From an uncultured Mycobacteriaceae bacterium (lineage in GTDB: Bacteria > Actinomycetota > Actinomycetes > Mycobacteriales > Mycobacteriaceae): a stretch of DNA of 64,000 nt. The notes under the pieces are model-generated. The model searched no databases. It was not told the DNA's origin and worked only from the letters and a program-made list of their open reading frames with translations. The stretch spans positions 62,001-126,000 of the forward strand of contig CADEGF010000010.1 in NCBI GenBank assembly GCA_902826815.1, written 5' to 3'. Positions 1 to 14,855 of this stretch are shown one piece after another. A program made the position numbers and the translations under genes. The first letter of the stretch is position 1. The number at the start of each line of letters is the position of its first letter.

Positions 1-1170
1 TCTGCTCGCTACGCCGAACGGCCGGCTGACAGCGTCATCCGCGGGCGTCGATTCATCGACCAGGAGCAGGTAGCGGTGGCGGCGGGCAGCACGTGCGCCG
101 CTGTCAGTGACCTGCCACGCGGCGAAGCCGTCTCGGCCCTTCGCTCTGGGGTGAGCACGCTGTTGCTCAAGCTTCTGGATGACGGCGAGATAGACGGTGT
201 GGTGTGCATGGGCGGGGCCGGCACTCACATCGCAGGTCCCGGTCTGCAGGAGCTCCCGCTCGGATTCCCCAAGCTGATCGTTTCACCGCTCGCTTCCGGC
301 AGCCGCACATTCGGCACCTACGTGGGCCTGCGCGACGTCGCGGTGATGCACTCGGTCGCCGACATCATCGGCGTGAACACCGTCACCTCTCCGATCTACC
401 GCTCGGCCGCCGGATACATTTTCGGTGCCGCTCTGGCGTACGCCAACCCGGCGAATTCTGCTCAAACCGCCGCTGCCGAACGCGTTGTCTCAGTCGCAGT
501 CTCAATGAACGGGAATACAACGCCTGCGCTCATGCGCGCGCGTATCGCTCTCGAACGGCGCGGTATACAGTTCGTCGCATTCCACGCCAACGGCTCCGGT
601 GGTCGCGCTTTGGAGGACACGGTGCGATCGGGCCGGGTGAGCGCAGTTCTCGACTACACAACCACCGAACTCGGCGGCCACCTTGTTGGCGGACTGATGG
701 ATCCGGGCCCAGACCGCATGGAGTCCGCGGGTCGCGCCGGGCTCCCTCAGGTCCTTGTGCCGGGGTGCATCGACTTCATCACCAGCGGCCCCACGCAAGA
801 AGCGAAAGCAGCCTTCCCCGACCGCAACTATTTCGGGCATAACCCCGAACTGACGCTGGTCCGTTTGACCGCCGACGAGATGGCACAGCTCGGAAAGGTA
901 TTCGCGCAGAAGGCCAATCTGGCCATGGGGCCAACCAAAATCATCGTGCCGATGGGCGGTTTCTCCGTCCCGGACACTCCCGGGCAACCGTTCTGGGACC
1001 CTGCGGCCGACCAAGCCTTCGTCAACGCCCTACGCGACGAACTCACCGATCGCGTCGAACTGGCCGTTCTCGATCACCACATCAATGATCACGCATTCAT
1101 CGACTACGTCCTCGACGAACTCATCGCCCTGCTGGATTCCCAGCAGGCACAACCACCCGCGTTTGCCTGA
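1..1170 (+). CDS. Tm-1-like ATP-binding (UPF0261) protein, 5' end outside window
   Basis: The reading frame is open from the first base of the window, so the gene starts upstream. The GTG at 76 lies inside a conserved part of the family and is probably an internal valine. The visible 389 residues fit the UPF0261/Tm-1-like family, which is usually about 400 residues: a Rossmann-like N-terminal half with a GGAGTH glycine loop, and a C-terminal half with the family's PTQEAKAAFPDRNYFGHNP stretch. The family is named after the tomato Tm-1 resistance protein. Its bacterial members bind ATP but have no established reaction. It is followed after 33 bp by a class I aldolase, and this pairing suggests a metabolic role in the island. 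The family call is firm; the function is unknown. Confidence 0.85.
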   Translation, partial: SARYAERPADSVIRGRRFIDQEQVAVAAGSTCAAVSDLPRGEAVSALRSGVSTLLLKLLDDGEIDGVVCMGGAGTHIAGPGLQELPLGFPKLIVSPLASGSRTFGTYVGLRDVAVMHSVADIIGVNTVTSPIYRSAAGYIFGAALAYANPANSAQTAAAERVVSVAVSMNGNTTPALMRARIALERRGIQFVAFHANGSGGRALEDTVRSGRVSAVLDYTTTELGGHLVGGLMDPGPDRMESAGRAGLPQVLVPGCIDFITSGPTQEAKAAFPDRNYFGHNPELTLVRLTADEMAQLGKVFAQKANLAMGPTKIIVPMGGFSVPDTPGQPFWDPAADQAFVNALRDELTDRVELAVLDHHINDHAFIDYVLDELIALLDSQQAQPPAFA

Positions 1171-1203
1171 CGGCGCCCGCCCCACCCCCACTGAGAGGTA
1201 TCA

Positions 1204-2061
1204 ATGTCCATCGGAAAAGACCTTCGGATGCGTCGGATCATCGACCCGGTCACCAACACGTCGGTGATGTTCGCGTTCTCCCACGGCACCAGTGTTCCCG
1301 AGGTGATGCAGGGTATCGAGGATCCGGCAACCAGCTTTCGAAAGGTCCGTGCCGGGGGTGCGAACTGCGCGTTCCTAACACCCGGTCTGCTGCAGACGCT
1401 TTCACCGATCATCGCCCAGTCTCCCGAGGTAGCGATCGTCGCCAAGATCACCGCGACCGCGACCCGGGGCGAGAAGGCACACCAGGAACGCCTCATCGCG
1501 TCCGTCGAGCACTGCGCCACACTCGGCGTCGACGGCGTCGTCGCCCTGTTGCCTTTCGCCCCGGAGAACGAGGCCGACATCATCACGCTGACCTCGACGA
1601 TCGGCGAGAAGTGCCGCGAGTTCGGCATGCCGTTTCTCGCCGAAGCCGAGTTCCCCAACGCGTACTTCGGTGACGGCAAGGACTACCAGAGCACCTGGGG
1701 CCTTTCCTACCTGAAGCGCAGCGCTCGGCTGTGTGTGGAGCTCGGCGCCGATGTCATCAAGTCGAACTGGCTCGGCACCCCCGAGGAGTTCGCGCCGATC
1801 GTCGACTGCGTATCCGGCACGCCGGTGATCGTCGCAGGCGGGTCCCGTGAGTCGGACCTCGCACTTCTGCGCAAGGTCAAAGCGGCCCGCGAAGTTGGTG
1901 CCGTCGGAACATCGGTGGGCCGCAACATCTTCCAGCATGCAAATCCGACCGCTATCACCGCTGCGCTGTGCGCGGTTCTGCGTGGCGAGCAATCCCCCGA
2001 AGAAGCCGTGGAGTCCAATCCCGAGTTGTCAGCCGACCGCGTGCTGACTGGCGCGCACTGA
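1204..2061 (+). CDS. DhnA/LsrF-type class I aldolase (DeoC/FbaB fold)
   Basis: A 285-residue TIM-barrel protein. The GADVIKSNW segment carries Lys186, the position of the Schiff-base lysine in DhnA, LsrF and class I fructose-bisphosphate aldolases. The C-terminal GRNIFQHANP phosphate-loop-like motif is also typical, as is the AFSHG strand near residues 24-28. Such enzymes cleave or condense phosphorylated keto-sugars. Here it would most simply make the final C-C cleavage of the pathway encoded by its neighbours. It sits 33 bp after the Tm-1-like gene and 13 bp before the IolM-like dehydrogenase, so it is probably in one operon with them. The substrate cannot be read from sequence. Confidence 0.8.
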   Translation: MSIGKDLRMRRIIDPVTNTSVMFAFSHGTSVPEVMQGIEDPATSFRKVRAGGANCAFLTPGLLQTLSPIIAQSPEVAIVAKITATATRGEKAHQERLIASVEHCATLGVDGVVALLPFAPENEADIITLTSTIGEKCREFGMPFLAEAEFPNAYFGDGKDYQSTWGLSYLKRSARLCVELGADVIKSNWLGTPEEFAPIVDCVSGTPVIVAGGSRESDLALLRKVKAAREVGAVGTSVGRNIFQHANPTAITAALCAVLRGEQSPEEAVESNPELSADRVLTGAH

Positions 2062-2074
2062 AAAGGAGAGCACG

Positions 2075-3238
2075 ATGAAGGCAGTGGTTCTGGAGGCCGA
2101 ATGGGCCCCGCGTCCCGGTGCACGAATCTCGGAGGCCGACGCGGCTCGTAAGTGGGCCGCGATCGCCAACGAGGCGTACCGCAACCCCAGTGTCGACGTG
2201 CGCACCGTCGACGATCCCGGTGAGCCCGGTCCCACCGAGTTGGTACTCGAGGTGGGGGCCTGCGGCCTGTGCGGCTCCGACGTGCACATGTTCGAGACTG
2301 ATGACGAGGGTTATCTACTGTTGCCCTACCACCTCAAGACACCGGTGATCACCGGCCACGAGTTCGCTGGCCGAATCGTCGCCAAGGGCAAGGACGTCCA
2401 TCAGTTCGGCGTGGGCGGCCTGGTCGCGGTCGAGGAGATCCAGTGGTGTGGCAAGTGCCGCGAATGTCGCGGTGGCTACTGGAACCAGTGCGGGTACATC
2501 GAAGACCTCGGGTTCACCCTCGACGGCGGCTTTGCACAGTACGTCAAAGTGGATTCGCGATTCGCCTGGTCGCTGGACGGCGTGCTGGCACGTTACGGCG
2601 ACGAGGAGACCGCGTTGGAGGTGGGCGCCCTCACTGAGCCAACCAGCGTCGCCTATGAAGGGATGTTCACCCGGGCGGGGGGCTTCAAGCCAGGCGGATC
2701 GGTGGTCGTATTCGGCGGCGGCCCAATTGGGTTGGCGTCGGTCGCCTTGGCCGCCGCCGCAGGCGCTGCGCAGGTGTTCGCGATCGACCCGCTCCCCGGT
2801 CGCCGCGATCTGACAGCCAAACTTGGTGCCACCACGGTCATCGACCCGACAACCGAGGATTCCGGCGATGTCGTTGCGGCGGCCACCAAGGGTGAAGGCG
2901 CAGCGATGGTCGTCGAGGCGAGCGGCAACTTCCCGGCCGTGATGGGTTCGGTCGAGGACACTCTCGGAGTCGGCGGCAAGGTCGTGATAGCCGGGATGGA
3001 TGCGCGCACCGCAAATCTGAACCTCATTCAGTACCAACTAAAGGCCGGATCGGTGTACGGCACCGTCGGACACTCCGGGTCGTGGGACTTCCCCAATGTC
3101 ATCAACCTGATGGCGTCGGGTCGGATCAGCATGGAACATGCCATCACCAGGCGCTTCCCGCTGGCGGGACTCGTTGAGGCGATCGACGAAACCAAGGCAC
3201 GCGGCAACGGAAAGATCCTCGTCAAGCCGCAACTCTAG
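2075..3238 (+). CDS. Zinc-dependent dehydrogenase, scyllo-inosose 3-dehydrogenase (IolM)-like
   Basis: A medium-chain dehydrogenase of 387 residues. Catalytic zinc ligands are Cys66 (GLCGSD) and His95-Glu96 (GHEF). The structural zinc site is Cys125, 128, 131 and 139. The NAD-binding loop FGGGPIG lies near residue 212. The N-terminus is longer than in ordinary alcohol dehydrogenases, with an extra segment around residues 15-45 and the pattern ETDDEGY after the zinc loop. From memory this matches IolM of Thermotoga maritima, which oxidises scyllo-inosose to a diketo-inositol. The next gene is a creatininase-fold hydrolase, the fold of IolN, which opens that diketone. I infer a similar substrate here, but a related sugar or polyol is possible. 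The GAAAAGGAGAG ribosome site 12 bp upstream supports the start. Confidence 0.75.
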   Translation: MKAVVLEAEWAPRPGARISEADAARKWAAIANEAYRNPSVDVRTVDDPGEPGPTELVLEVGACGLCGSDVHMFETDDEGYLLLPYHLKTPVITGHEFAGRIVAKGKDVHQFGVGGLVAVEEIQWCGKCRECRGGYWNQCGYIEDLGFTLDGGFAQYVKVDSRFAWSLDGVLARYGDEETALEVGALTEPTSVAYEGMFTRAGGFKPGGSVVVFGGGPIGLASVALAAAAGAAQVFAIDPLPGRRDLTAKLGATTVIDPTTEDSGDVVAAATKGEGAAMVVEASGNFPAVMGSVEDTLGVGGKVVIAGMDARTANLNLIQYQLKAGSVYGTVGHSGSWDFPNVINLMASGRISMEHAITRRFPLAGLVEAIDETKARGNGKILVKPQL

Positions 3239-3245
3239 GCAGGGC

Positions 3246-3270
3246 GCCGGCCCGGGATGTCCGGGCCGGC
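3246..3270 (+). terminator. GC-rich hairpin after the IolM-like gene
   Basis: A perfect 10-bp stem (GCCGGCCCGG / CCGGGCCGGC) with a 5-nt loop lies 8 bp after the stop codon. No T-tract follows, so it may attenuate transcription or stabilise the upstream mRNA rather than fully terminate it. Confidence 0.5.
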
Positions 3271-3348
3271 AGCCCGCCCCAAACAGTCTTCACAACAACG
3301 AGATTCAGGTCCGAGACGTTCGGGCCTCCGCGCTGAAAGGCAACAAAG

Positions 3349-4206
3349 ATGTCCGAACTGCACTCCCGGCTTCTCACCGATCTGGCCCCTCCCGACATTC
3401 AGGACTATCTCAAGACCGACGACACCATCTTGATGCCGATGGGTGCCGTCGAAATGCACGGCTACCACCTGCCGATCGGCACCGACATCTACAACGCCAT
3501 GGAAGTCTCCAAGCGGGCCGCCGAGAAGGCCGACGTCCTATACGGGCCGCCGATCTGGACCGGCTACAGCCCGCACCACCTGCGCGAGCCCGAAACTGGA
3601 CAGGGAACACTGACCTTCCGCGGCGAGACTCTTCGGGCAGTCCTTCACGACACCGCCCGCTCCCTGATTCACCACGGCTTCAACAGAATCATCTTCGTGA
3701 ACGGGCACACGTCCAACACCAAGGCCACCGACGAGGTCTTCCGACAGCTGCGCTACGAGACCGGGGCACTGCTCGGCATGTTCAAACCCTACGGCGAGCG
3801 TTACCTCGGCATCATCGAGGACCTGATGGAGAACTCTCCGGAAGAGACCGCCGGCTGGCACGCTAGCGAGCAGGAGACGTCCATCATGATGGCCTACAAA
3901 GCCGACAACGTGAAGATGGACCGTGCGCTCGATACGCGCGCCCAGGCGCCCGATTGGCTGCCGTCGTCGTTCAAGAAGGTCGACGCCAGCCCCGACGTTG
4001 AATTCCAAGGTTTCGAATACTTCTACTTCCCGATGGAGCACCAGGAGATGGCGCCGCACGGCGTGATCGGAAATCCGCTGCGCGCGACCGCCGAGAAGGG
4101 CGAGCAGATCTTCGAGCGCTTCTCCGACCATCTTGCGGCAGCAGTGGAGGAACTCAAGAAGGTCAAGGTCGATATCAAGAGCCGTGCATACATCCAGAAG
4201 GCCTAG
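3349..4206 (+). CDS. Creatininase-family hydrolase, possible ring-opening (IolN-like) enzyme
   Basis: A 285-residue creatininase-fold metallohydrolase. Metal ligands of the family are visible: Glu35-x-His37-x-x-His40 in the EMHGYHLPIGTD block with Asp46, NGH at 118-120, and His171 to Glu176 in WHASEQETS. The family includes creatininase, formamide hydrolases of cofactor synthesis (MftE, ArfB) and IolN, which hydrolyses 3-dehydro-scyllo-inosose. Because it follows an IolM-like dehydrogenase, a C-C or lactone-type ring opening of a diketo-cyclitol is the best reading. MftE is less likely because no other mycofactocin maturation gene is nearby. A 110-bp gap with a hairpin separates it from the previous gene. 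Family certain, substrate inferred. Confidence 0.75.
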   Translation: MSELHSRLLTDLAPPDIQDYLKTDDTILMPMGAVEMHGYHLPIGTDIYNAMEVSKRAAEKADVLYGPPIWTGYSPHHLREPETGQGTLTFRGETLRAVLHDTARSLIHHGFNRIIFVNGHTSNTKATDEVFRQLRYETGALLGMFKPYGERYLGIIEDLMENSPEETAGWHASEQETSIMMAYKADNVKMDRALDTRAQAPDWLPSSFKKVDASPDVEFQGFEYFYFPMEHQEMAPHGVIGNPLRATAEKGEQIFERFSDHLAAAVEELKKVKVDIKSRAYIQKA

Positions 4207-4242
4207 CCCTTAACGTCATTCGACGCACCGAGAGAAGCAGAC

Positions 4243-5361
4243 ATGACCACAAGCTGGAAACAGAAGTCCACACCGTCGAAAGCAGTCAACCACGTGGAGC
4301 GGGAACCGGTCGTCGAGTTGCGCGGTGCATCGAAGTTCTACGGCGACGTGTGCGTCGTCGACCAGATCAGCCTGGACATTCAGGAGGGCGAGTTCTTCGC
4401 ACTCCTTGGTCCGAGCGGCTGCGGCAAGACCACGACACTTCGCATGATCGCGGGCTTCGAAGAACCGACCGTGGGCCAAGTGCATATCGCAGGCAAGGAC
4501 GTCACCGACGTCGCCCCTTACCGCCGCCCGGTCAACACCGTGTTCCAGAATTACGCATTGTTCCCTCACATGAAGATCGCTGACAACGTCGCGTATCCGC
4601 TGAAGATGCAGAAGGTTGCCAAGAGCGAGATCAAGACGAAAGTGGCTGAGGCCCTCGACCGCGTCGATATGGGGGGCGCCGCAACCCGTCTGCCGCACCA
4701 GCTTTCAGGCGGGCAGCGTCAGCGCATCGCTCTGGCCCGCGCACTTGTCGCTCAGCCCAGAGTGCTGCTGCTGGACGAGCCGCTCGGTGCCCTCGACTTG
4801 AAGCTACGCGAGCAAATGCTCACTGTATTGAAGAACCTGCAACGTGACGTCGGTATCACGTTTATCTATGTCACTCACGACCAGGGCGAGGCACTGGCAA
4901 TGAGCGATCGCATCGCGGTGATGAACAGAGGTGTCGTCGAGCAGATCGGCTCCCCCACCGAGATTTACAACCGGCCGCAGACACCTTTCGTTGCAGGGTT
5001 CATCGGTAAGACGAATCTTCTTCAAGCGCGCCGCACGGGCGATAGCGAGGTGGGCATCGGCGATCTGACGACGCGCACGAGCTGCGCAGTCGCCCAAGAA
5101 GACCCGACCGTGAGCCTGCGCTACGAATGCGTGATGATGGGTGACTCCGCCGCCGGTCAACCGAACAGGTACTCGGGCATCGTCGAGGATGTCACGTTCT
5201 TCGGCCACGAGAAGGAAGTGTCGGTGAACGTTGCCGGGCAGAAGATTGTCTCCCGTATCTCTGGAATCGGCCCTGACGATAACGGGCCGCGCATCGGTGA
5301 TTCCATTCCGGTCGGCTGGTCCTTAACGGCGCCGGTCGTGCTCGAGCGGGGCACACAATGA
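4243..5361 (+). CDS. ABC transporter ATP-binding protein, polyamine/opine type (PotA-like)
   Basis: ATPase subunit of 372 residues that powers the importer encoded by the next three genes. Walker A GPSGCGKTT is at residues 56-64, the Q-loop at FQNYALFPH, the signature LSGGQRQRIALARAL near 154-168, Walker B LLLDEP at 175-180, and the switch His in THDQGEA. The C-terminal 130 residues are the TOBE regulatory domain of the PotA/FbpC branch. The stop codon overlaps the start of the first permease by 4 bp, so the two are translationally coupled. It stands 36 bp after the creatininase-like gene, which places uptake and catabolism in one transcription unit. Confidence 0.92.
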   Translation: MTTSWKQKSTPSKAVNHVEREPVVELRGASKFYGDVCVVDQISLDIQEGEFFALLGPSGCGKTTTLRMIAGFEEPTVGQVHIAGKDVTDVAPYRRPVNTVFQNYALFPHMKIADNVAYPLKMQKVAKSEIKTKVAEALDRVDMGGAATRLPHQLSGGQRQRIALARALVAQPRVLLLDEPLGALDLKLREQMLTVLKNLQRDVGITFIYVTHDQGEALAMSDRIAVMNRGVVEQIGSPTEIYNRPQTPFVAGFIGKTNLLQARRTGDSEVGIGDLTTRTSCAVAQEDPTVSLRYECVMMGDSAAGQPNRYSGIVEDVTFFGHEKEVSVNVAGQKIVSRISGIGPDDNGPRIGDSIPVGWSLTAPVVLERGTQ

Positions 5362-6266
5362 CCGCGATCGCCGAAGAGGTCACGACATCCACGCAGAAAT
5401 CCAGCCCCCCCGCGCCTCGCAAGCGACGCCGCGTGATCGATGAGATCAAGGCGTACGTTCAAGCGTCGCCTGCCTTCATATGGGCGCTGGCTCTCATCGT
5501 GCTGCCCAACATCGTATTGTTCTTGAACAGCCTGTGGAAGAACGACTTCGGTACCGTAACGAAGACGCCGACATTGGAGAACTACCAGGCGCTCGTCGAG
5601 TCCGAAGTCAACCGAACGCTGTTCTGGCGCACGTTGGTGACCGCGGTCAGCTCATCGCTGATCGCGACCGTGATTGCCTATGTCGCGGCGGTCATCGTCG
5701 TCCGCTACTTCGGCAAGTTCAAACTCATCGTCGCGATTCTGGTTCTTGTGCCGCTGCTCATCAGCTACCTCATGCGCATCTTCGCTTGGAAGATCATCCT
5801 CGGCGAACACGGCATTCTCGTCGGTGCATTCGGCGATGTCGTGCCGAAGAACATTCTGTACTCCCAGCTTTCAGTGATTCTGACGCTCACCTACGTCGCT
5901 ATCCCATACGTATTTCTCAGCGTTTTCGTTTCGCTGGAGCGCATCCCGCCGCACATTACCGAGGCTGCAGGTGACTGCGGGGCATCGGCCTGGACGACCT
6001 TCTGGACGGTCCTGTGGCCGCTCTCCCGCGGTGGCGCTGCCGTCGGATTCGCGATCGGATTTGTCTTGACGTTCGGCGATTACGTCACTCCCGCAATGGT
6101 GGGTGGACTGTCAGGAACGATGCTCGGCTCAATCGTGCTCCAGCAGTTCGGTATCGCGAACAACTGGCCGTTGGGCTCAGCGATCGGCGTCGTGGTGATC
6201 CTCTCCGGCCTGCTGGTCCTTGCCGTGATGTCTCTGTTTACCCGCACGGAGGCCCGCTATGACTAG
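5358..6266 (+). CDS. ABC transporter permease, PotB-like
   Basis: Inner-membrane subunit of 302 residues with about six hydrophobic helices, the first near residues 35-55. The EAA loop that docks on the ATPase is visible as EAAGDCGASAWTTFWTVLWPLS. A basic, Ser/Thr-rich cytoplasmic N-terminus precedes the first helix. It overlaps the ATPase gene by 4 bp and the second permease by 8 bp. By family it pairs with the PotC-type permease to form the channel of a polyamine/putrescine/thiamine/opine-type importer. Confidence 0.9.
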   Translation: MTAIAEEVTTSTQKSSPPAPRKRRRVIDEIKAYVQASPAFIWALALIVLPNIVLFLNSLWKNDFGTVTKTPTLENYQALVESEVNRTLFWRTLVTAVSSSLIATVIAYVAAVIVVRYFGKFKLIVAILVLVPLLISYLMRIFAWKIILGEHGILVGAFGDVVPKNILYSQLSVILTLTYVAIPYVFLSVFVSLERIPPHITEAAGDCGASAWTTFWTVLWPLSRGGAAVGFAIGFVLTFGDYVTPAMVGGLSGTMLGSIVLQQFGIANNWPLGSAIGVVVILSGLLVLAVMSLFTRTEARYD

Positions 6267-7155
6267 TGCTCCCACGATCACCGATCCGGTGGCACCCGAC
6301 ACCGGCGCCTCACGCTCAGGACCGCCTCGACGCAGGCGAAAGGTCAAGCCCGGCCTCGTCATCGGCTTGGTGTTTCTGACAGCGGTGTTCGGCTTCCTCT
6401 ACGCCCCGCTGATCACGACCGCGCTGTTCTCGTTCAACTCCAGCAACGTGCAGACGTGGCCGATGCAAGGTGTCACGACGCAGTGGTACCACGACCTGTT
6501 CGCCGACGATGCCATGATCACCGCGCTCTTCTACAGCCTGCGCGTCGCGGTGGTCGCCGTCGCCGTCAGCGCCGTAGCCGGCCTGACGTTCTCGCTGATC
6601 GCACAACGCGTGCAGTTCAGCGGTAAGCGAGCTCTGGACGCGGTGCTGGCGATCCCGTTGGTGGCACCGGGAATGGTGCTGGGCATCTCGCTGCTGGTGG
6701 TCTTCAATATCGCGAAAGTGCAGACGGGCTTTCTGACTCTGGTGGTAGGCCACGCCGCATTCATCACTCCTCTGGTGATGTTCGTTCTGCAGCAGCGCCT
6801 CAAGACCATGGACCCGTCGATCGAGCACGCATCGATGGACCTCGGTGCCGGCCGGATCAAAACCTTCTGGCATGTCACCCTGCCCGGCGTTCGAGTTTCA
6901 CTGCTCGCTGCTTGCCTGCTCGGGTTCACACTGTCAATGGACGAGATCGCAGTGTCGTTCTTCCTGGCGGGAACACAGCCGACTCTGCCTGTCTACGTGT
7001 GGGGTTTGCTCCGATTCGGGTTCACTCCCGAGGTCAATGCCGTTTTCACCCTCATTGGCGCCTTCAGCCTTCTACTGATCGGAGGCGCGCTCATCATGCT
7101 TCTCGCCACTGCACGTCGGCGCGAGAAACAACTCGTCGACCTCGGGACTTCCTGA
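6259..7155 (+). CDS. ABC transporter permease, PotC-like
   Basis: Second permease subunit, 298 residues, with six predicted membrane helices starting near residue 35 and an EAA loop reading EHASMDLGAGRIKTFWHVTLPG. The N-terminal 30 residues are a Pro/Arg-rich cytoplasmic tail. It overlaps the upstream permease by 8 bp, and its stop (TGA) overlaps an ATG, but the better start of the following gene is 45 bp further on. The four subunits form a complete importer. Confidence 0.9.
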   Translation: MTSAPTITDPVAPDTGASRSGPPRRRRKVKPGLVIGLVFLTAVFGFLYAPLITTALFSFNSSNVQTWPMQGVTTQWYHDLFADDAMITALFYSLRVAVVAVAVSAVAGLTFSLIAQRVQFSGKRALDAVLAIPLVAPGMVLGISLLVVFNIAKVQTGFLTLVVGHAAFITPLVMFVLQQRLKTMDPSIEHASMDLGAGRIKTFWHVTLPGVRVSLLAACLLGFTLSMDEIAVSFFLAGTQPTLPVYVWGLLRFGFTPEVNAVFTLIGAFSLLLIGGALIMLLATARRREKQLVDLGTS

Positions 7156-7199
7156 TGACCAACGAGTTTCACACCCCTTCAACCGCTCAGGAGACAGTC

Positions 7200-8375: not shown

Positions 8376-8382
8376 GTGGATA

Positions 8383-8422: not shown

Positions 8423-8512
8423 ACCTCGCACTCAAATAGCCGCCCACAGGATAGAATCGACAAGCGAAGCGGACCAATGGACATTCGCGACACGCCGCGG
8501 TTGCGGCTGATT

Positions 8513-8522
8513 ATTCCGAACG
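8513..8522. promoter_or_regulatory. Half-site ATTCCGAACG upstream of the XRE-cupin gene
   Basis: These ten bases equal the right half of the perfect palindrome CGTTCGGAATTCCGAACG found at 12641-12658. The position is 24 bp before the chosen start codon. A single half-site may occur by chance, so this is a weak call. Confidence 0.3.
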
Positions 8523-8545
8523 CTGACCGATCTACGGAGGATGCG

Positions 8546-9169
8546 ATGGCAGAGGCAGTAGATGACGTCAACGAACTAGAGTCGATCGGGGCGCGGTTGC
8601 GCACGCTGCGCACCGAGCACGGGTTCTCTATCCGCGCACTCGCGGAGCGCGCCGAAATCTCATCATCGGTCATCAGTGAGGTCGAACGCGGCAAGACCGA
8701 ACCATCGATCTCCACGCTCAAGCGTCTCGCCGCTGCGCTCGGGACAAGCATCACGTACTTCTTCACCACCCCGTCGCAGGTGAACGGCCATGTTGTTCGT
8801 GCGGCCTCCCGCAAACAAGTCTCCTTCAAATACCGCCCGGAGGACGGTGACACCAACGACCAGAGGTCGTCGATCGTCGCGCGCGGTGTGCACTTCGAGG
8901 TCGCAAGCCCCGATTCTTCAGAAGTTCTCGAAGCGATCTACGGACGCTACGAGCCCGGCGCTTCGACCGGTGACGAGCTCTACACCCACGAGGGCGAAGA
9001 GTGGGGAATGGTTCTGACCGGACGGTTCAAAGTCACCCTCGCAGACGAAGTGCATTTTCTGGACCCCGGTGACTCCATTTGGTTTCATAGCAATATTCCG
9101 CACAAAATCGAGAATGTGGCTCCGGGCGTCAGTGAATACATTTGGGTCGACACACCAAAGTCATTCTAA
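8546..9169 (+). CDS. XRE-family transcriptional regulator with C-terminal cupin
   Basis: A 207-residue regulator. The ATG at 8546 is preferred over 8477 because GGAGG lies 5 bp upstream and it starts just before the helix-turn-helix. The HTH_3 domain spans about residues 14-70 (IRALAERAEISSSVISEVERG). A cupin_2 domain spans about 125-205 (YEPGASTG, GEEWGMVLTGRF, GDSIWFHSNIPHKI) and would bind the inducer. XRE-cupin proteins commonly control adjacent amine, polyamine or sugar catabolic genes. It lies between the importer operon and the first SDR, so it is the local regulator candidate. A half-site, ATTCCGAACG at 8513-8522, matches the palindrome at 12641-12658, which hints at autoregulation. 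Confidence 0.85.
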   Translation: MAEAVDDVNELESIGARLRTLRTEHGFSIRALAERAEISSSVISEVERGKTEPSISTLKRLAAALGTSITYFFTTPSQVNGHVVRAASRKQVSFKYRPEDGDTNDQRSSIVARGVHFEVASPDSSEVLEAIYGRYEPGASTGDELYTHEGEEWGMVLTGRFKVTLADEVHFLDPGDSIWFHSNIPHKIENVAPGVSEYIWVDTPKSF

Positions 9170-9214
9170 ACTCATCCGGCATGTCTGGATCAATATATTG
9201 GAAACGGAAAAGAA

Positions 9215-10045
9215 ATGGGACGAGTAGAAGGAAAAGTCGCTTTTATCACCGGTGTGGCGCGCGGTCAGGGCCGATCGCATGCCATCAAACTGGCCGAGGA
9301 AGGCGCCAACATCATCGGGGTGGACATCTGCGCTCCCGTGGAGTCCGCGCCGTATGAGATGGCCTCACGCGAAGACCTGGACGAGACCGTGCGATTGGTC
9401 GAGGAGGCAGGCGGCAAGATGGTGGCGAAGGTGGCAGATGTTCGCGACCTCGACGCACTTACCTCAGCTGTCGACGAGGGCGTCGCGATGTTCGGCCGAC
9501 TCGACATCATCCTCGGCAACGCGGGCGTCTGCACCTATGGCGAGCTGTCGACCATGAATGTGTCCCAGTGGCAGGAAATGATCGACATCGATCTCACCGG
9601 AGTGTGGATGACCGTCCGAGCGAGCGTGCAGCAGATGATCAGCGCAGGCAACGGCGGCGCGATTGTCCTCACGAGTTCCACTGCCGGTCTGCGCAATCTT
9701 AACCAGATCGGGCACTATGTCGCCGCCAAGCACGGCGTCACAGGTCTGACGAAGGCATTCGCCAATGAGCTTGCACCGCACAATATCCGAGTCAATTCCA
9801 TCCATCCGAGCAATTGCCGGACTCGGATGATGACCAACTCCGGGGTCCGCAAGATGTTCCGCCCCGACCTCGAGGATCCCAGCCTCGAAGACGCCATCGA
9901 GGGTTTCGGCGTTATCCACCTGCTCGACACGCCCTGGGTGGAGCCCGAGGACGTCAGCGCTGCGATTCTGTACCTGGTGTCCGACGACGGGCGCTTTGTC
10001 ACCGGCACGCAGGTAGCGGTCGACGCGGGCATGCTCGCCAAATAA
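9215..10045 (+). CDS. Mycofactocin-coupled SDR family oxidoreductase
   Basis: A 276-residue short-chain dehydrogenase. It shows the mycofactocin-coupled subfamily pattern: GKVAFITGVARGQGRSHA at the N-terminus, VDIC at the end of beta-2, and a 30-residue insertion after it (ASREDLDETVRLVEEAGG). The NAG motif is GNAGV, and the catalytic Ser and YVAAK are present. Enzymes of this subfamily keep a non-exchangeable NAD(H) that is re-oxidised by mycofactocin. They act on secondary alcohols. Next to the IolM-like and Gfo/Idh genes it probably oxidises a hydroxyl of the same polyol. A second member at 12994-13827 is clearly related but not a recent copy. A purine-rich stretch (GGAAAAGAA) precedes the ATG. 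Confidence 0.85.
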   Translation: MGRVEGKVAFITGVARGQGRSHAIKLAEEGANIIGVDICAPVESAPYEMASREDLDETVRLVEEAGGKMVAKVADVRDLDALTSAVDEGVAMFGRLDIILGNAGVCTYGELSTMNVSQWQEMIDIDLTGVWMTVRASVQQMISAGNGGAIVLTSSTAGLRNLNQIGHYVAAKHGVTGLTKAFANELAPHNIRVNSIHPSNCRTRMMTNSGVRKMFRPDLEDPSLEDAIEGFGVIHLLDTPWVEPEDVSAAILYLVSDDGRFVTGTQVAVDAGMLAK

Positions 10046-10065
10046 AGCAAACATAGACGGGAGTT

Positions 10066-10365
10066 GTGATGCCGATGTCGTTCACTCACATCGTGACCTT
10101 CAAGTGGAAAGACGATGGGTTCGACGCCGAGCCAGTCGCTGACGCGCTGAAACAGCTTGTCCCACAGCTTGACGGCGTTGTCGATTACACCTGCGGGCCC
10201 GACATCGGCCTCACACCCTCGAGTTACGACTTCGCGGTGGTCGGATCCTTCGCAAGTCGCAATCACTTCCTCACCTACCGCGACCATCCCGAGCACCAGC
10301 GAATCATCAACGAGATGATTGTTCCGAATCTCGACCGCAGGACCGTCGTTCAGCTCGAGACGTGA
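10066..10365 (+). CDS. Dabb (stress-responsive A/B barrel) domain protein
   Basis: A 99-residue single-domain protein of the dimeric alpha/beta barrel type: FTHIVTFKWKD at the first strand, and a central FAVVGSFASRNHFLTYRDHPEHQ block typical of Dabb proteins. Dabb proteins include polyketide cyclases and many members without known activity. The gene starts 21 bp after the SDR and its stop overlaps the start of the Gfo/Idh gene, so it is co-translated with pathway enzymes. It may be an accessory enzyme such as an isomerase or cyclase acting on an unstable keto intermediate. That role is inference. Confidence 0.8.
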   Translation: MMPMSFTHIVTFKWKDDGFDAEPVADALKQLVPQLDGVVDYTCGPDIGLTPSSYDFAVVGSFASRNHFLTYRDHPEHQRIINEMIVPNLDRRTVVQLET

Positions 10366-11348
10366 CTGCCGGTATGGACGGATACGCACGTCTTCGGTGG
10401 GGTTTGGTGTCCACGGCAACCATCTCGTCCGACGTGATCCCGGGGCTGCAGCGATCCACCAAGAATGAACTCGTCGCGGTTGCATCCCGCGACATTGCAG
10501 TCGCCGAAAAATTCGCTGGGGTCAACAACATCCGAGAGGCATTCGGGAGTTACGAGGCTCTGCTCGATGAACCTACGATCGACTGCGTCTACATTCCGCT
10601 GCCGAATCACCTTCACGCGGAGTGGACACAGAAGGCTCTCCTCGCCGGCAAGCACGTCCTGTGCGAAAAGCCGTTCGTCGCCGATCCCTCCGAAGCGACG
10701 AAGTTGTTCACGCTGGCAGATGTACGCGGCGTTCATCTGGCCGAAGCGTTCATGTACCGCCACCATCCGAAGACCCACGCGCTCAAACGCGTGATCGACT
10801 CCGGCCAGCTCGGTGATATTCACACCATCAGGTCGTGGTTCACCTACCCCGCCGAGGACTCGATCACGGATATCCGCTTCCAACCCGGAATGGACGGCGG
10901 TGCATTGCGTGACGTCGGCTCCTATCCGGTGAGCATGTGCAATTACCTACTCGATTCAGAACCCGATTCCCTCAACGCGACTCAGGTCTGCGACCGCAAC
11001 GGGATCGATGTGCGGTTCTACGCAACGATGCGTTACGCCAACGGCGTTGTGACGATGGTGGACTGCTCGATGTCTTCACAGGCCGGATACGGTGTGACGG
11101 TGATCGGCACTTCGGGTACCGCAATCCTTGCCTGCCCCTGGTACAGCCACAAGTCGCCAGACTATCTCGAGATCACCACATCCACCGGTACGGTTCGGAT
11201 CACCCCGGAGGGTACCGAGAACGCCTATTTCCTGGAGACGGAGAACTTCGCCGACGTCGTACGCGGGCAGGCCGACCCCGACGTCCCCGCCGACGAAACC
11301 GTCCGTACAATGCGGACATTGGAGCGTCTGCAACAAGCCGCGTCCTAG
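10362..11348 (+). CDS. Gfo/Idh/MocA-family oxidoreductase
   Basis: NAD(P)-dependent dehydrogenase of 328 residues. It has the N-terminal Rossmann strand WGLVSTATIS, the family EKP motif with its lysine at residues 102-104 (LCEKPF), and the C-terminal alpha/beta domain with DVGSYPV. The family contains inositol 2-dehydrogenase (IolG), glucose-fructose oxidoreductase and many sugar dehydrogenases. The first residues lack a classic GxGxxG. In this island it is the natural candidate for the first oxidation of a cyclitol, but other sugars are possible. The GTG at 10362 overlaps the Dabb stop; an ATG at 10374 is an alternative start. Confidence 0.82.
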   Translation: MTAGMDGYARLRWGLVSTATISSDVIPGLQRSTKNELVAVASRDIAVAEKFAGVNNIREAFGSYEALLDEPTIDCVYIPLPNHLHAEWTQKALLAGKHVLCEKPFVADPSEATKLFTLADVRGVHLAEAFMYRHHPKTHALKRVIDSGQLGDIHTIRSWFTYPAEDSITDIRFQPGMDGGALRDVGSYPVSMCNYLLDSEPDSLNATQVCDRNGIDVRFYATMRYANGVVTMVDCSMSSQAGYGVTVIGTSGTAILACPWYSHKSPDYLEITTSTGTVRITPEGTENAYFLETENFADVVRGQADPDVPADETVRTMRTLERLQQAAS

Positions 11349-11356
11349 CCAAAATA

Positions 11357-11391
11357 CAGTGGCCGCCACCATTTAATGGTGACGGCCACTG
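11357..11391. terminator. Bidirectional terminator between convergent genes
   Basis: A 16-bp stem (CAGTGGCCGCCACCAT paired with ATGGTGACGGCCACTG, one wobble or mismatch) with loop TTA. It lies 9 bp after the Gfo/Idh stop and 13 bp from the stop of the opposing binding-protein gene, so it can serve both strands. Confidence 0.8.
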
Positions 11392-11403
11392 AGCCGACTA
11401 CCG

Positions 11404-12567
11404 TCAGGCGCCAATTCCGAGCTTGAATTGGTTCCACATCTCAACACGCTTGGTCAGATCCTCCACCGGTTGGTAAAAGCGCATTGACGAGAAGAATTTC
11501 TCACCCGATGCGGTCGCAGGAATCAAGGTCTGAGCTAGAGCCTCCTCCGTCAGACCCGCCTTGACGGCCTCAGGTGACTTCGCTTGAGCGAGACTGAGAG
11601 TGCCTGAGTTGCTGCTGGTTCCGATGAAGCGAGCCTGCCATGGCACATCCAACGTGTAGTTGATGAACTTGTAGACCGCGTCAGACTTCTCGGCACCGGC
11701 CTTGGTGACAGCGTAGTTATCGCTCCAGGCTGGAACTCCTTGCTTCACTTCGTGGTTGACCTCGAGTTTCTTGCCGTCTTTCGCCAGCATGCCAACCTCG
11801 GAGATGATGTTCAGATATCCAATAGTGGCTTCTCCGTTGGCGAATTGCGTCACCTGGTCGTTGTATCCCGACGTCAGCCGCTTCACTTGGGGACGAAGTG
11901 CGCTGAGTTTCTCCTGCACTTGGGTGAACTGCTCCGGCGTCAGGTTGAAGGGGTCATTCATGCCGAGCGCGAGCGGGATCATCGGCAGAACCGAGGTTGG
12001 GTCGTCGAATATCGACACCTTCCCCGTGAACGCCGGATCCCAGTAGATGTTCCAATCGTTCGGACGCCCTTGCGCGTCGAGATACTTCGCCATTTCCGGT
12101 GTGTTCGGAATGCTTCCAGGGATCCAGGCCATCGGCTGATCGCCCCAGTTGTAGAGAACTCCGTACTGAGTGTCGTCCGACGACGCGACGGATTTCCAGT
12201 CGAAACCAGGTTCTGGTTGGTGGATGACCTTGCCTGCGTCAATCGGCTCCAGCAATCCGGCCTTGGCGTAGTTGTCGAACCAGCCCGAGGTAACCAGGGC
12301 GATATCGAACTGCGACGGATTGGCTTTGACTTTCGCGAACATCTCGTCCGGTGAACCTACGTTGACGGCGTTGACTTTGATACCTGTTTCCTTGGTGAAC
12401 GAATCGAGCCACTCCTGCTCGTGGTATCCCTGCCAAGTCAAGACATTGAGCGTATTGGAATCCGTCGACTCCGATCCGCCGCATGCCGTCAATCCGGCGA
12501 TCAACACCCCCGCGACGGAAGCGGCGGCAATCCCACGGATCCCGCGGGACAACGACCTTACCTTCAC
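11404..12567 (-). CDS. Second (orphan) ABC substrate-binding lipoprotein, paralogue of the PotD-like protein
   Basis: A 387-residue binding protein that aligns end to end with the one at 7200-8375, apparently about three quarters identical by eye (shared GIKVNAVNVGS, LVTSGWFDNYAKA, TGKVSIFDDPTSVLPM). The signal peptide ends in lipobox LTAC. The start is GTG at 12567 with AGGAGG 6 bp upstream. It has no ATPase or permease of its own and is transcribed away from the next gene, from a 426-bp divergent promoter region. The simplest reading is an alternative receptor for the importer at 4243-7155 that broadens or tunes its ligand range. Confidence 0.88.
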   Translation of the reverse strand: MKVRSLSRGIRGIAAASVAGVLIAGLTACGGSESTDSNTLNVLTWQGYHEQEWLDSFTKETGIKVNAVNVGSPDEMFAKVKANPSQFDIALVTSGWFDNYAKAGLLEPIDAGKVIHQPEPGFDWKSVASSDDTQYGVLYNWGDQPMAWIPGSIPNTPEMAKYLDAQGRPNDWNIYWDPAFTGKVSIFDDPTSVLPMIPLALGMNDPFNLTPEQFTQVQEKLSALRPQVKRLTSGYNDQVTQFANGEATIGYLNIISEVGMLAKDGKKLEVNHEVKQGVPAWSDNYAVTKAGAEKSDAVYKFINYTLDVPWQARFIGTSSNSGTLSLAQAKSPEAVKAGLTEEALAQTLIPATASGEKFFSSMRFYQPVEDLTKRVEMWNQFKLGIGA

Positions 12568-12640
12568 TGCGACCTCCTAAGTCGACTGTTGGAACCGCAC
12601 ACCCAGCGCGTCGAGAGCTGTGTATCAGCACCGATCTGAC

Positions 12641-12658
12641 CGTTCGGAATTCCGAACG
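12641..12658. promoter_or_regulatory. Perfect 18-bp palindrome CGTTCGGAATTCCGAACG
   Basis: The sequence equals its own reverse complement. It sits 74 bp upstream of the orphan binding-protein start, where an operator of the local XRE-cupin regulator would be expected. A degenerate copy (TGATCGGAACTCCGAGCG) is at 12903-12920, near the SDR promoter. Confidence 0.6.
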
Positions 12659-12902
12659 CGGCGGACACGGCTTCCACACCATCGCGGTGGAGAGCGGAGA
12701 CCACCGAATCCGGCCGATCCGAACACGATCGCTCGGCAGATCAGCGAGTCCGCTGCGTAACTCCAGATTTGCGTTGTCACAGGTTATTTTGCCAACACAA
12801 CTGTCCGACTAGGTTGTTGCCACGTCGGCGACCTCCGCACTGGAGGCTCATTCCACAGTGGATCGACGGCGTATTAAGTTGTAGCCGTACCGTACATGAA
12901 GG

Positions 12903-12920
12903 TGATCGGAACTCCGAGCG
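12903..12920. promoter_or_regulatory. Imperfect copy of the CGTTCGGAATTCCGAACG palindrome
   Basis: It matches 14 of 18 positions of the palindrome at 12641-12658, including the core CGGAAnTCCGA. It is 74 bp upstream of the second mycofactocin SDR start, the same distance that separates the first palindrome from its gene. Confidence 0.45.
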
Positions 12921-12993
12921 TTTTGCTTACTTTTATGGAATACTGTGCGACTAGGCCAGTTGACGGTGTGTAGGACCGAAAGGACGAACTGAT

Positions 12994-13827
12994 ATGGGCC
13001 AACTCGACGGTCAGGTTGCGTTCATCACCGGACTCGCGCGGGGTCAGGGTCGCTCGCATGCCCTCACTCTCGCCAACGAAGGCGCTGACATCATCGGGCT
13101 GGACCTATGTGGCGAAATCGACTCGACCACCTACCCGGGCTCCACCCCTGCGGATCTGGAGGAGACAGAACGGCTCATCAAAGAGACCGGTCGCCGCGCG
13201 GTTTTGTCACAAGCGGATGTTCGAGACTACGGACAAGTCGCGGCCGCCTTCGCGAGGGGGCTCCAACAACTGGGGCGGGTAGACATCGTCGTTCCCAACG
13301 CAGGCATCTGCGCAGGCGGAAAGACGTGGGAGATCGCGACCGACGCGTGGCGAGAGATGGTTGACATCAACCTCACCGGCGCCTGGCACGCCGTCAAAGC
13401 GTCTGTGCCTACCTTGATTTCGCAGGGACAGGGCGGTTCGGTCGTGTTCATCGGATCGACCGAGGCCCTGAAGGGCGCAGAGAACATGTCGTCCTACGCG
13501 GCGTCGAAGCACGCAATCACCGGCTTGATGACCTGCTTGGCCAGAGAGCTCGGCCAGTACAACATTCGTGTCAACTCGGTCAATCCGACGTGCGTGGATA
13601 CCAATATGATCCAAAACCCCTATGTCTGGGGGCTTTTCCAACCTGACAATTCCAATCCGACCCGCGAGTCGGTCGAGGACGCCTTCACGAGCACACACAT
13701 TCTGCCTGTGCCCTGGATGGAGCCAGTCGATGTCAGCCGTTCGATTCTCTACCTTGTCGGTGAGTCCGGCCGCTACGTCACGGCATCCACCTTGACCATC
13801 GATGCCGGCTTCATCGTCAAATCCTGA
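12994..13827 (+). CDS. Mycofactocin-coupled SDR family oxidoreductase (second)
   Basis: A 277-residue SDR with the same mycofactocin-coupled signature as 9215-10045: GQVAFITGLARGQGRSHA, LDLC after strand 2, an insertion with TPADLEETERLIKETG, PNAGI, and active-site YAASK. The C-terminus (MEPVDVSRSILYLV, DAGFIVKS) is also typical. It differs enough from the first copy to suggest a different substrate or the other stereochemistry. It is followed after 8 bp by an aldo/keto reductase, so the pair is one unit. Confidence 0.85.
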   Translation: MGQLDGQVAFITGLARGQGRSHALTLANEGADIIGLDLCGEIDSTTYPGSTPADLEETERLIKETGRRAVLSQADVRDYGQVAAAFARGLQQLGRVDIVVPNAGICAGGKTWEIATDAWREMVDINLTGAWHAVKASVPTLISQGQGGSVVFIGSTEALKGAENMSSYAASKHAITGLMTCLARELGQYNIRVNSVNPTCVDTNMIQNPYVWGLFQPDNSNPTRESVEDAFTSTHILPVPWMEPVDVSRSILYLVGESGRYVTASTLTIDAGFIVKS

Positions 13828-13835
13828 CGCCGCAC

Positions 13836-14855
13836 ATGTCAGCAATCGACACCAGACGAATCGGCTCGACACCGCTGACAGTCACGGCTTTAGGTTTCGG
13901 GTCCGCACCACTCGGCAACCGGTTTCGTGAACTCGGCGAGGACCATTGTCGGTCCCTTGTCGATGACGCATGGGATCGCGGCATTCGGTTGTTCGATACA
14001 GCGCCGATGTACGGACTCGGCTTGGCGGAGAACCGTCTTGGAACGGCACTTCGATCCCGCCCGCGCTCGGAGTTTGTCCTGTCCACGAAGGTGGGGCGGA
14101 TGTTGGAACCCTGCGACGACGGCCCTGTCGACCCGATGTGGGTGAACACGCCGCCCATGCGGGTCGTGTACGACTACAGCTACGACGGCACGCTTCGATC
14201 CATCGAGGACAGCATGCAGCGCATGCTGACCGATCGAATCGATATCGCACTCATCCACGATTGCGACCGCTACGGACACGGCGATGGTCAGCCCGCAGTG
14301 TTCGAGCAAGCGATGAGTCAAGCCGCCCGCGCACTGCTGGATTTGCGGGATCAAGGCGTCCTCGGCGCGGTCGGCATCGGTGTCAATGAGGCCGATGTGT
14401 GTGTGGCCGCCGCCGAGCGGGCCGACTTCGACGTATTCCTCCTGGCCGGCCGCTACTCCCTGCTCGAACAGGATCCGCTCGACGACCTTCTGCCTCTGTG
14501 CACGCAGCGGAATATTTCGCTACTCCTCGGTGGCGTATACAACAGCGGCATTCTGGCAACCGGGGCTGTGCGCGGGGCGCGGCACAATTATGAGGGTGCC
14601 GAGGGCGATGTCGTGGCTCGCGTCGCGGCCATTGAGAAACTCTGTATCGCACACGATGTCGCGCTCGCAGCGGTAGCGCTGCAGTTCGCGCTTGGGCATC
14701 CGGCCGTAGCCAGCGTGGTCTTGGGGGCGTCATCGGTCGACCAGCAGGCGACCAACGTCGCTGCCGCAGAAGTGGTGATTCCCGATGCGCTATGGGAGGC
14801 ACTGCGTGAGAACAACTTTCTGCGTGCAGACGCTCCGATATCCTCGTCTCGATGA
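13836..14855 (+). CDS. Aldo/keto reductase, D-threo-aldose (L-fucose) dehydrogenase-like
   Basis: A 339-residue (alpha/beta)8 NAD(P)-dependent oxidoreductase. The catalytic tetrad is visible: Asp and Tyr in FDTAPMYG, Lys in LSTKVG and His in LIHDCDRYG. The HDCDRYGHG stretch and the LGGVYNSGILATG block resemble bacterial D-threo-aldose 1-dehydrogenases, which oxidise L-fucose, D-arabinose or L-galactose to lactones. Here it may act on an aldose-like product of the pathway. It ends 70 bp before the opposing D-2-hydroxyacid dehydrogenase gene. Confidence 0.8.
   Translation: MSAIDTRRIGSTPLTVTALGFGSAPLGNRFRELGEDHCRSLVDDAWDRGIRLFDTAPMYGLGLAENRLGTALRSRPRSEFVLSTKVGRMLEPCDDGPVDPMWVNTPPMRVVYDYSYDGTLRSIEDSMQRMLTDRIDIALIHDCDRYGHGDGQPAVFEQAMSQAARALLDLRDQGVLGAVGIGVNEADVCVAAAERADFDVFLLAGRYSLLEQDPLDDLLPLCTQRNISLLLGGVYNSGILATGAVRGARHNYEGAEGDVVARVAAIEKLCIAHDVALAAVALQFALGHPAVASVVLGASSVDQQATNVAAAEVVIPDALWEALRENNFLRADAPISSSR

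What the first reader, a model, noticed from the sequence alone, without database searches (positions are those of the whole stretch)
1..14855. Candidate mycofactocin-linked ring-opening pathway for a cyclitol or related polyol
Seen: an IolM-like zinc dehydrogenase, a creatininase-fold hydrolase directly after it, a Gfo/Idh oxidoreductase, a DhnA-type aldolase, two mycofactocin-coupled SDRs, an aldo/keto reductase, a Dabb protein, a Tm-1-like protein, a full ABC importer and an XRE-cupin regulator in 15 kb. Known: in Thermotoga, IolG, IolM and IolN turn inositol into scyllo-inosose, a diketo-inositol and then 5-keto-L-gluconate. Inference: the island runs an analogous oxidation, second oxidation and hydrolytic ring-opening scheme on a different substrate, with mycofactocin as electron carrier and a dedicated aldolase at the end. 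A polyamine-type importer suggests a substrate with an amino group, such as an aminocyclitol. I know of no described pathway with this composition.
Basis: partly seen in the sequence, partly recalled or inferred. Interest (0 to 1): 0.8.

Follow-up and report, generated by a model that had tools for sequence, protein, structure and literature searches.

The report
Undescribed kinase-dependent polyol breakdown gene island
A soil mycobacterium carries a gene island that probably imports and breaks down an amine-bearing sugar-like compound by a route combining enzyme families for which no joint description was found; the compound itself is still unknown.

Summary
The gene list is real; only the Tm-1-like (UPF0261) gene starts about 150 bases before the window. 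The IolM call holds: 524 bits, cut-off 450, seen in 1 of 394 genomes of the class. The IolN call fails (88 of 245), as do MftE and creatininase. The hydrolase belongs to a separate family. Of 77 other loci, the 63 with enough DNA upstream all hold UPF0261 within 7 kb; most also hold a GlcD-like dehydrogenase (60) and an IolO-like epimerase (51), and none has an IolM relative above 30% identity. The IolM version is its own clade: window, Mycolicibacterium komossense, a Mycolicibacterium MAG, Rhodococcus koreensis. All four share UPF0261-IolM-hydrolase; the other genes recur in one or two of the three relatives, and DhnA in none. An amine in the substrate gains support from amino-acid permeases and a glycine-cleavage operon beside the block, each in two of the four genomes. 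Ring, substrate and reaction order remain unproven.

The parts
1..1170 (+). UPF0261 (Tm-1-like) protein, probable small-molecule kinase; gene starts about 150 bases before the window
   Evidence: Pfam PF06792 and PF23189 far over cut-off; start in L003; solved relatives 9mpy and Tm-1
1204..2061 (+). DhnA-type class I aldolase, not found in the relatives
   Evidence: PF01791; below the cut-offs of the 6 NCBIfam families it matches; no match at E<=1e-20 in 3 of 3 related genomes
2075..3238 (+). IolM-family zinc dehydrogenase
   Evidence: NF041097 524.4 bits, cut-off 450; 3ip1
3349..4206 (+). creatininase-fold hydrolase of the UPF0261-linked family, IolM-linked clade
   Evidence: PF02633 210.7 bits; below IolN, MftE and creatininase cut-offs; 80 loci; tree
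4243..5361 (+). PotA-type ATPase of an ABC importer
   Evidence: TIGR01187 364.3 bits, cut-off 355.6
5358..6266 (+). PotB-type permease
   Evidence: PF00528
6259..7155 (+). PotC-type permease
   Evidence: PF00528
7200..8375 (+). PotD-like substrate-binding protein 1
   Evidence: start codon
8477..9169 (+). XRE-cupin regulator (PuuR-like, below cut-off)
   Evidence: PF01381, PF07883; PuuR 84.9 of 211 bits
9215..10045 (+). mycofactocin-coupled SDR 1
   Evidence: TIGR03971 391.1 bits, cut-off 300
10069..10365 (+). Dabb-domain protein
   Evidence: PF07876
10362..11348 (+). Gfo/Idh/MocA oxidoreductase, not IolG by cut-off
   Evidence: PF01408; IolG 99.3 of 355
11404..12567 (-). PotD-like substrate-binding protein 2
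12994..13827 (+). mycofactocin-coupled SDR 2
   Evidence: TIGR03971 368.5 bits, cut-off 300
13836..14855 (+). aldo/keto reductase
   Evidence: PF00248

Best explanation
The island is a catabolic unit for an amine-bearing polyhydroxy compound. Shown: gene families, a UPF0261-IolM-hydrolase core shared by four genomes, a mycofactocin gene in all four, and the tie of UPF0261 to the creatininase-fold hydrolase across phyla. Inferred: the compound enters through the Pot-type importer (amino-acid permeases in some relatives); mycofactocin-coupled SDRs and the IolM-type zinc dehydrogenase oxidise two hydroxyls to ketones; UPF0261, a MarK-type small-molecule kinase, phosphorylates the substrate or the keto intermediate; the creatininase-fold hydrolase then cleaves a bond next to a carbonyl; an aldolase (DhnA here, perhaps an unrelated TIM-like protein in M. 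komossense and R. koreensis) splits the phosphorylated fragment; and the amine-bearing fragment drains into glycine and serine metabolism. The logic is dehydrogenase - kinase - C-C cleavage.
For: IolM cut-off passed and rare in the class, 1 of 394. UPF0261 as kinase: closest solved structures are 9mpy, Saro_1862 of Novosphingobium aromaticivorans with bound acetovanillone, and Tm-1. A 2026 paper says that acetovanillone catabolism in that species starts with MarK, 'a single-component kinase' (PMC13101465, passages). On a P. putida plasmid UPF0261 stands with a CoA ligase, a biotin/lipoyl-type protein, biotin carboxylase, a carboxyltransferase-like protein and an HAD hydrolase, where the hpe operon has its kinase (PMC9618137, passages). 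UPF0261 within 7 kb of the hydrolase in 63 of 63 loci with 4.5 kb upstream. Core in 4 of 4 genomes. Amine: amino-acid permeases beside SDR2, or one gene from AKR, in 2 of 4 genomes; glycine-cleavage operon divergent from UPF0261 in 2 of 4 genomes, while gcvP, gcvT, glyA and sdaA were within 7 kb in 0 of the 77 other loci.
Against: No activity was measured. MarK = Saro_1862 = 9mpy is my inference; the MarK paper was not held. MarK acts on phenols, so a role on polyols is an extension. The carboxyltransferase-like and HAD proteins of the P. putida plasmid are below their cut-offs. The glycine-cleavage operon is not beside the block in the window or on the MAG's contig. DhnA was not found in the relatives, the MAG has no SDR1 relative above 50% identity, and R. 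koreensis has no PotD2 match. The binding protein keeps only part of the PotD amine site (residue roles recalled). In the 77 other loci IolM relatives are absent or distant, so the shared reaction may not involve an IolM product.
Confidence: 0.38

Rival explanations
1. One reading: a cyclitol or aminocyclitol is oxidised twice and the ring is opened by the creatininase-fold hydrolase, as IolG-IolM-IolN do for inositol in Thermotoga.
For: IolM family membership. In the two haloarchaeal plasmids opened (of 7 haloarchaeal records) the IolM-family gene is directly beside a ThDP enzyme, in one of them with Gfo/Idh and TIM-barrel genes following, which would fit a cyclitol route with another ring-opening enzyme.
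Against: Hydrolase fails the IolN cut-off, Gfo/Idh fails IolG, no IolO-like gene found. The ThDP enzymes score best on acetolactate synthase models, below cut-off, and no IolD model was among the 25 families shown. An IolM-family gene also occurs away from inositol-type genes.
Confidence: 0.22
2. The substrate is acyclic, a sugar acid or aminopolyol acid: dehydrogenase, isomerase, UPF0261 kinase and hydrolase form a tetronate-like route as in the 77 other loci, and IolM only replaces the GlcD-like dehydrogenase.
For: GlcD-like in 60 of 63 and IolO/psicose-epimerase-like in 51 of 63 loci; a Thermus plasmid with a class II aldolase and tripartite tricarboxylate transporter beside the pair, and a zinc dehydrogenase (IolM 225 of 450, threonine dehydrogenase 245 of 458 bits) divergent from it; LarA-type racemase in 6 of 77 loci.
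Against: The IolM-linked hydrolases are a separate clade (55% between against 77% mean identity within the others), so the substrate may differ; no GlcD- or IolO-like gene in the window or the 11 stretches examined.
Confidence: 0.22
3. A CoA-independent relative of the threonine dehydrogenase route: the dehydrogenase oxidises the beta-hydroxyl of a hydroxy-amino acid and the hydrolase cleaves the beta-keto amino acid to glycine plus an acid.
For: Second-best families of the dehydrogenase are threonine 3-dehydrogenases; the glycine-cleavage and serine operon beside the block in two genera; amino-acid permeases.
Against: Threonine dehydrogenase scores are far under cut-off (176 of 458) and IolM is over its own; it leaves UPF0261 and the mycofactocin SDRs unexplained.
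Confidence: 0.1
4. Two unrelated units side by side: UPF0261-IolM-hydrolase, and an import unit of Pot genes with mycofactocin SDRs.
For: The same genome has a second PotABCD-SDR2 set without UPF0261, IolM or hydrolase on the 20 kb read (L121); R. koreensis has the core without Pot genes; the MAG has no close SDR1.
Against: In R. koreensis the core is directly followed by XRE-cupin, SDR1 and Dabb although Pot genes are missing; in M. komossense and the MAG the Pot genes follow the hydrolase as in the window.
Confidence: 0.14

Closest known systems
Thermotoga inositol pathway (IolG, IolM, IolN, IolO; recalled, the 2013 paper was seen only as a reference in PMC5931981)
   Same: IolM-family dehydrogenase directly followed by a creatininase-fold hydrolase
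   Different: Hydrolase and Gfo/Idh below the IolN and IolG cut-offs; no IolO-like gene found; UPF0261 and mycofactocin SDRs added
Acetovanillone (Hpe/Acv/MarK) pathway
   Same: UPF0261 protein, in the role of initiating kinase by inference
   Different: No biotin carboxylase, HAD phosphatase or CoA ligase among the best matches of the island proteins examined; IolM and the creatininase fold instead
Tetronate pathways with DUF1537 kinase (recalled)
   Same: dehydrogenase - isomerase - kinase - C-C cleavage is the logic proposed for the 77 other loci
   Different: UPF0261 in place of DUF1537 and a creatininase fold in place of the class II aldolase-type decarboxylase
Plant Tm-1-like proteins (UPF0261 fused to a TIM barrel; PMC5028733, passages and one section)
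   Same: UPF0261 domain, 193 bits to Tm-1
   Different: Gene partner here is a creatininase-fold hydrolase, not the fused barrel

Membership tests
IolM, scyllo-inosose 3-dehydrogenase (NF041097) | score over the curated cut-off of 450 bits | tested here: met
   524.4 bits
IolM, scyllo-inosose 3-dehydrogenase (NF041097) | oxidation of scyllo-inosose | not testable with these tools
   needs an assay
Thermotoga-type inositol pathway | IolN over cut-off 245 bits | tested here: not met
   88.5 bits
Thermotoga-type inositol pathway | IolG over cut-off 355 bits | tested here: not met
   99.3 bits for 10362-11348
Thermotoga-type inositol pathway | IolO-like epimerase nearby | tested here: inconclusive
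   no hit at E<=1e-8 in the window and 11 stretches of this and related genomes, with IolO-like queries from other phyla; rest of the genome not searched
creatininase (TIGR04448) | score over cut-off 235 bits | tested here: not met
   125.3 bits; the place of creatininase Glu122 is Ser in 81 of 81 rows (its metal role is recalled)
MftE (TIGR03964) | score over cut-off 172 bits | tested here: not met
   103.6 bits
creatininase fold (PF02633) | Pfam cut-off and fold | tested here: met
   210.7 bits; Foldseek best hits are creatininases; model mean pLDDT 74, residues 196-240 below 50
UPF0261 | both Pfam domains over cut-off | tested here: met
   134.8 and 239.1 bits, cut-offs 27
MarK-type small-molecule kinase | ATP-dependent phosphorylation of a small molecule | not testable with these tools
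   homology and context only
mycofactocin-coupled SDR (TIGR03971) | over cut-off 300 bits and mycofactocin gene in the genome | tested here: met
   391.1 and 368.5 bits; mftC in 4 of 4 genomes with the core
polyamine importer PotABCD | PotD/PotF equivalog cut-off | tested here: not met
   PotD 76.7 of 582, PotF 68.3 of 636
polyamine importer PotABCD | amine-contact residues of PotD | tested here: inconclusive
   second binding protein aligned to 8y5h: keeps D168, W255, D257; has G, S, N at E36, E171, W229 (counted by hand on the printed alignment, roles recalled)
conserved gene block | same order in other genomes | tested here: met
   UPF0261-IolM-hydrolase in 3 of 3 relatives; PotABC, XRE, SDR1, Dabb, Gfo, PotD2 and SDR2 each in 2 of 3, AKR in 1 of 3, DhnA in 0 of 3

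The most novel reading that the evidence does not exclude
A UPF0261 kinase and a creatininase-fold hydrolase form a widespread, undescribed catabolic module in which phosphorylation precedes hydrolytic C-C cleavage of a keto-polyol. Mycolicibacteria and Rhodococcus run an IolM and mycofactocin version of it on an aminocyclitol, with the nitrogen leaving as glycine.
Probability: 0.17. Interest if true: 0.8.

Novelty: new variant of a known kind. Interest (0 to 1): 0.6.

Why it matters
UPF0261 occurs in bacteria, archaea and land plants (Tm-1; PMC5028733), and its function is mostly open. A steady two-gene partnership with a creatininase-fold hydrolase in many phyla gives a direct way to test it. 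If the kinase reading holds, it would also suggest what the plant protein does. For mycobacteria it would add a growth substrate to mycofactocin metabolism, and it shows that automatic IolM labels need not mean inositol.

Tried and rejected
Hydrolase as IolN, MftE or creatininase: all below cut-off. 'Same substrate as the 77 other loci': weakened by the deep split of the IolM-linked clade. DhnA as the fixed last step: no match in 3 of 3 related genomes at E <= 1e-20. PF09370 barrel beside the UPF0261-hydrolase pair: 0 of 77 within 7 kb, although clustering put such a protein farther away in 5 loci (one of the five tested as PF09370). Pot importer as proof of a polyamine: not supported. TIM-like protein P0002 of R. 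koreensis: no Pfam or NCBIfam family and no credible PDB match (best E 0.87); several plasmid relatives overlap genes annotated PdxA or cupin; no meaningful similarity to DhnA. UPF0261 fold beyond its own family: nucleotide-sugar epimerase and glycosyltransferase-type matches covering one domain at rmsd about 3-4 A, or both domains at about 15 A or worse; no functional weight given. Paper searches (10 of 10 used) showed no pathway with this composition: UPF0261/Tm-1-like (5 papers), inositol-IolM-IolN-creatininase (1 paper on hens), diketo-inositol terms (4 papers), creatininase with glycine cleavage, mycofactocin, Tm-1, IolM/IolN/IolO, mycofactocin/polyol/creatininase/sarcosine (173 papers, 12 listed, none on point). 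(9MPY; PotD residues) gave nothing of use. The library holds open-licence papers only, so absence there is weak.

Odds changed after re-reading the calls: best explanation 0.40 to 0.38 and the two-units rival 0.12 to 0.14, because the block beyond its three-gene core recurs only in part.
Full report
Where it is. The window is bases 62001-126000 of contig 10 of a 6.87 Mb genome. The nearest named relatives of the hydrolase are in Mycolicibacterium komossense (95% identical) and an uncultured Mycolicibacterium (94%), then Rhodococcus koreensis (88%). Among 61 genomes searched with the hydrolase at E <= 1e-20, the window's genome and 36 genus mates included, only the window's own had a close match; two others matched at 33-34% identity. 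In 394 genomes of the class, 3 matched at E <= 1e-40: the window's own and two at 56%.

The genes. The UPF0261 frame runs from L003:11848 to window base 1170. There are two PotD-like binding proteins, the second on the minus strand. IolM (524.4 of 450 bits), the two mycofactocin-coupled SDRs (391 and 368 of 300) and PotA at subfamily level (364.3 of 355.6) pass curated cut-offs; IolN, MftE, creatininase, IolG, PotD and the aldolase families that DhnA matches do not.

IolM. A search of 394 genomes of the class found an IolM-family match in the window's genome only; of 14 control genomes only Thermotoga maritima rang (in the genomes listed only four candidates were scored). The best solved relative is 3ip1, aligned from residue 2, while the next solved structures align from about residue 40, so an N-terminal stretch is shared with 3ip1 (that 3ip1 is the T. 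maritima protein is recalled). On plasmids, relatives at 36-40% identity occur in 2 Streptomyces and 7 haloarchaeal records. I opened three. In both haloarchaeal ones the IolM gene is directly beside a ThDP enzyme, and in one Gfo/Idh and TIM-barrel genes follow; the ThDP enzymes score best on acetolactate synthase models, below cut-off. In S. chartreusis the neighbours look aromatic rather than inositol-like. The label alone therefore does not fix the substrate.

The hydrolase. A scan of genome contigs found 88 relatives, of which the best 80 were kept. Glu35, His37, His120, His171, Glu174 and Glu176 are invariant in 81 rows and Asp46 is kept in 80 of 81; the place of creatininase Glu122 is Ser in 81 of 81 (metal roles recalled). 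Among the 77 rows outside the IolM-linked group mean identity is 77.3%; between the groups it is 55.2%. The tree sets window, L013, L014 and L015 apart with full support on a long branch. Of the 77 loci, 63 have at least 4.5 kb upstream. Within 7 kb these hold UPF0261 in 63, GlcD-like in 60, IolO-like in 51, GlcF-like in 32 and gcvP, gcvT, glyA or sdaA in 0; IolM relatives are found in 2, at no more than 30% identity. UPF0261 is mostly the gene just upstream, but in L044, L052 and L073 order, strand or distance differ. UPF0261 of 300 residues or more was found in 75 of 80 loci on the plus strand, and in L052 on the minus strand; the other four begin within 430 bases of the hydrolase. By record title the 80 loci span Actinomycetota, Chloroflexota, Rhodothermota, Bacteroidota, Deinococcota, Gemmatimonadota, Poribacteria and Balneolota; many are MAGs, so some labels may be binning errors. 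Six Thermus plasmids have the hydrolase at 49% identity. In the two opened, UPF0261 follows it (short, before a transposase, in the second), and a zinc dehydrogenase and a TIM-barrel gene lie divergently; that dehydrogenase scores 225 of 450 on IolM and 245 of 458 on threonine dehydrogenase.

UPF0261. Sequence and fold searches put it with plant Tm-1 and with 9mpy, Saro_1862 of Novosphingobium aromaticivorans with bound acetovanillone. [quoted passage not shown] the cited paper (Hall et al. 2025, title seen in the reference list) was not held, so that Saro_1862 is MarK is my inference. Support from context: on a P. putida plasmid the order is acetoacetate-CoA ligase, UPF0261, a biotin/lipoyl-type protein, biotin carboxylase, a carboxyltransferase-like protein (308 of 402 bits), an HAD hydrolase (HAD-IIA 83.5 of 100) and an amidohydrolase, close in content to the hpe operon described in PMC9618137 (passages), with UPF0261 where the kinase would be. 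Of six plasmid UPF0261 neighbourhoods opened out of 309 records, four have a gene annotated 'phosphoenolpyruvate hydrolase family' next to UPF0261.

Conservation of the block. M. komossense has UPF0261-IolM-hydrolase-PotA-PotB-PotC-PotD1 up to a contig end, and PotD1-XRE-SDR1-(TIM-like protein)-Gfo-PotD2 on a 5 kb contig. The MAG has UPF0261-IolM-hydrolase-PotA-PotB up to a contig end and, on another contig, Dabb-Gfo-PotD2-SDR2-AKR; no SDR1 relative above 50% was found in it. R. koreensis has UPF0261-IolM-hydrolase-XRE-SDR1-Dabb, with SDR2 and a second SDR1 about 20 kb away and no PotD2 relative genome-wide at E <= 1e-20. So the three-gene core is in 3 of 3 relatives, most other genes in 2 of 3, AKR in 1 of 3, and DhnA in 0 of 3 at E <= 1e-20. 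A protein of about 227 residues that looks like a TIM barrel by eye occurs near the block in M. komossense and R. koreensis; it matches no known family.

Nitrogen link. In M. komossense and R. koreensis the operon running away from UPF0261 is sdaA-glyA-gcvH-gcvT-gcvP (gcvH, and some members in R. koreensis, by similarity between the two genomes only). Beyond sdaA in R. koreensis lie a RarD-like gene (read by eye), an amino-acid permease, a class III aminotransferase, SDR1, SDR2 and a second amino-acid permease. In the MAG an amino-acid permease follows AKR after one gene. In the window the next genes are a Rieske oxygenase related to glycine betaine monooxygenase (228 of 670 bits), a reductase and a BCCT transporter, then a protein with a GcvT-type C-terminus, serine hydroxymethyltransferase and sarcosine oxidase genes; apart from glyA/SHMT and GcvT relatives in the operon named above, these gave no best hit on the relatives' stretches read. 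The binding protein keeps part of the PotD amine site. Together this favours an amine-bearing substrate that yields glycine or a C1 unit, without proof.

Judgement. The IolN analogy fails as membership and is possible only as function. The more interesting point is outside the proposal: a UPF0261 kinase candidate tied to a creatininase-fold hydrolase across phyla, of which this block is an unusual IolM-linked version.

Noticed in passing
window 15919-20620 (minus) and 21692-31982 (plus): Glycine betaine monooxygenase-like Rieske enzyme, reductase and BCCT transporter, then a protein with a GcvT-type C-terminus, serine hydroxymethyltransferase and sarcosine oxidase subunits: a betaine-to-glycine region next to the block.
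   Followed up: partly
L121:5574-10603 (same genome, contig 11): A second PotABCD set (69-81% identical) followed by a close SDR2 relative (84%), without UPF0261, IolM or hydrolase on the 20 kb read.
   Followed up: no
L096:12001-13167: Streptomyces chartreusis gene labelled iolM among genes annotated fumarylacetoacetate hydrolase, VOC, thiamine-dependent enzyme and muconolactone isomerase; the iolM label may be over-broad.
   Followed up: partly
L015:16199-16882 and L116:1780-2631: Unnamed protein of about 227 residues, TIM-barrel-like by eye, near the block in two genera; several plasmid relatives overlap genes annotated PdxA or cupin.
   Followed up: partly
window 33811-36018 (minus): Old-yellow-enzyme-type protein closest to the mycofactocin-system OYE family 2, below its cut-off (491 of 793 bits).
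   Followed up: no
window 37744-38652 (minus): Ureidoglycine aminohydrolase, over cut-off, pointing to allantoin or purine breakdown.
   Followed up: no
L092: Record titled Bifidobacterium breve groups with Nanopelagicales MAGs in the hydrolase tree, so the label is doubtful.
   Followed up: no
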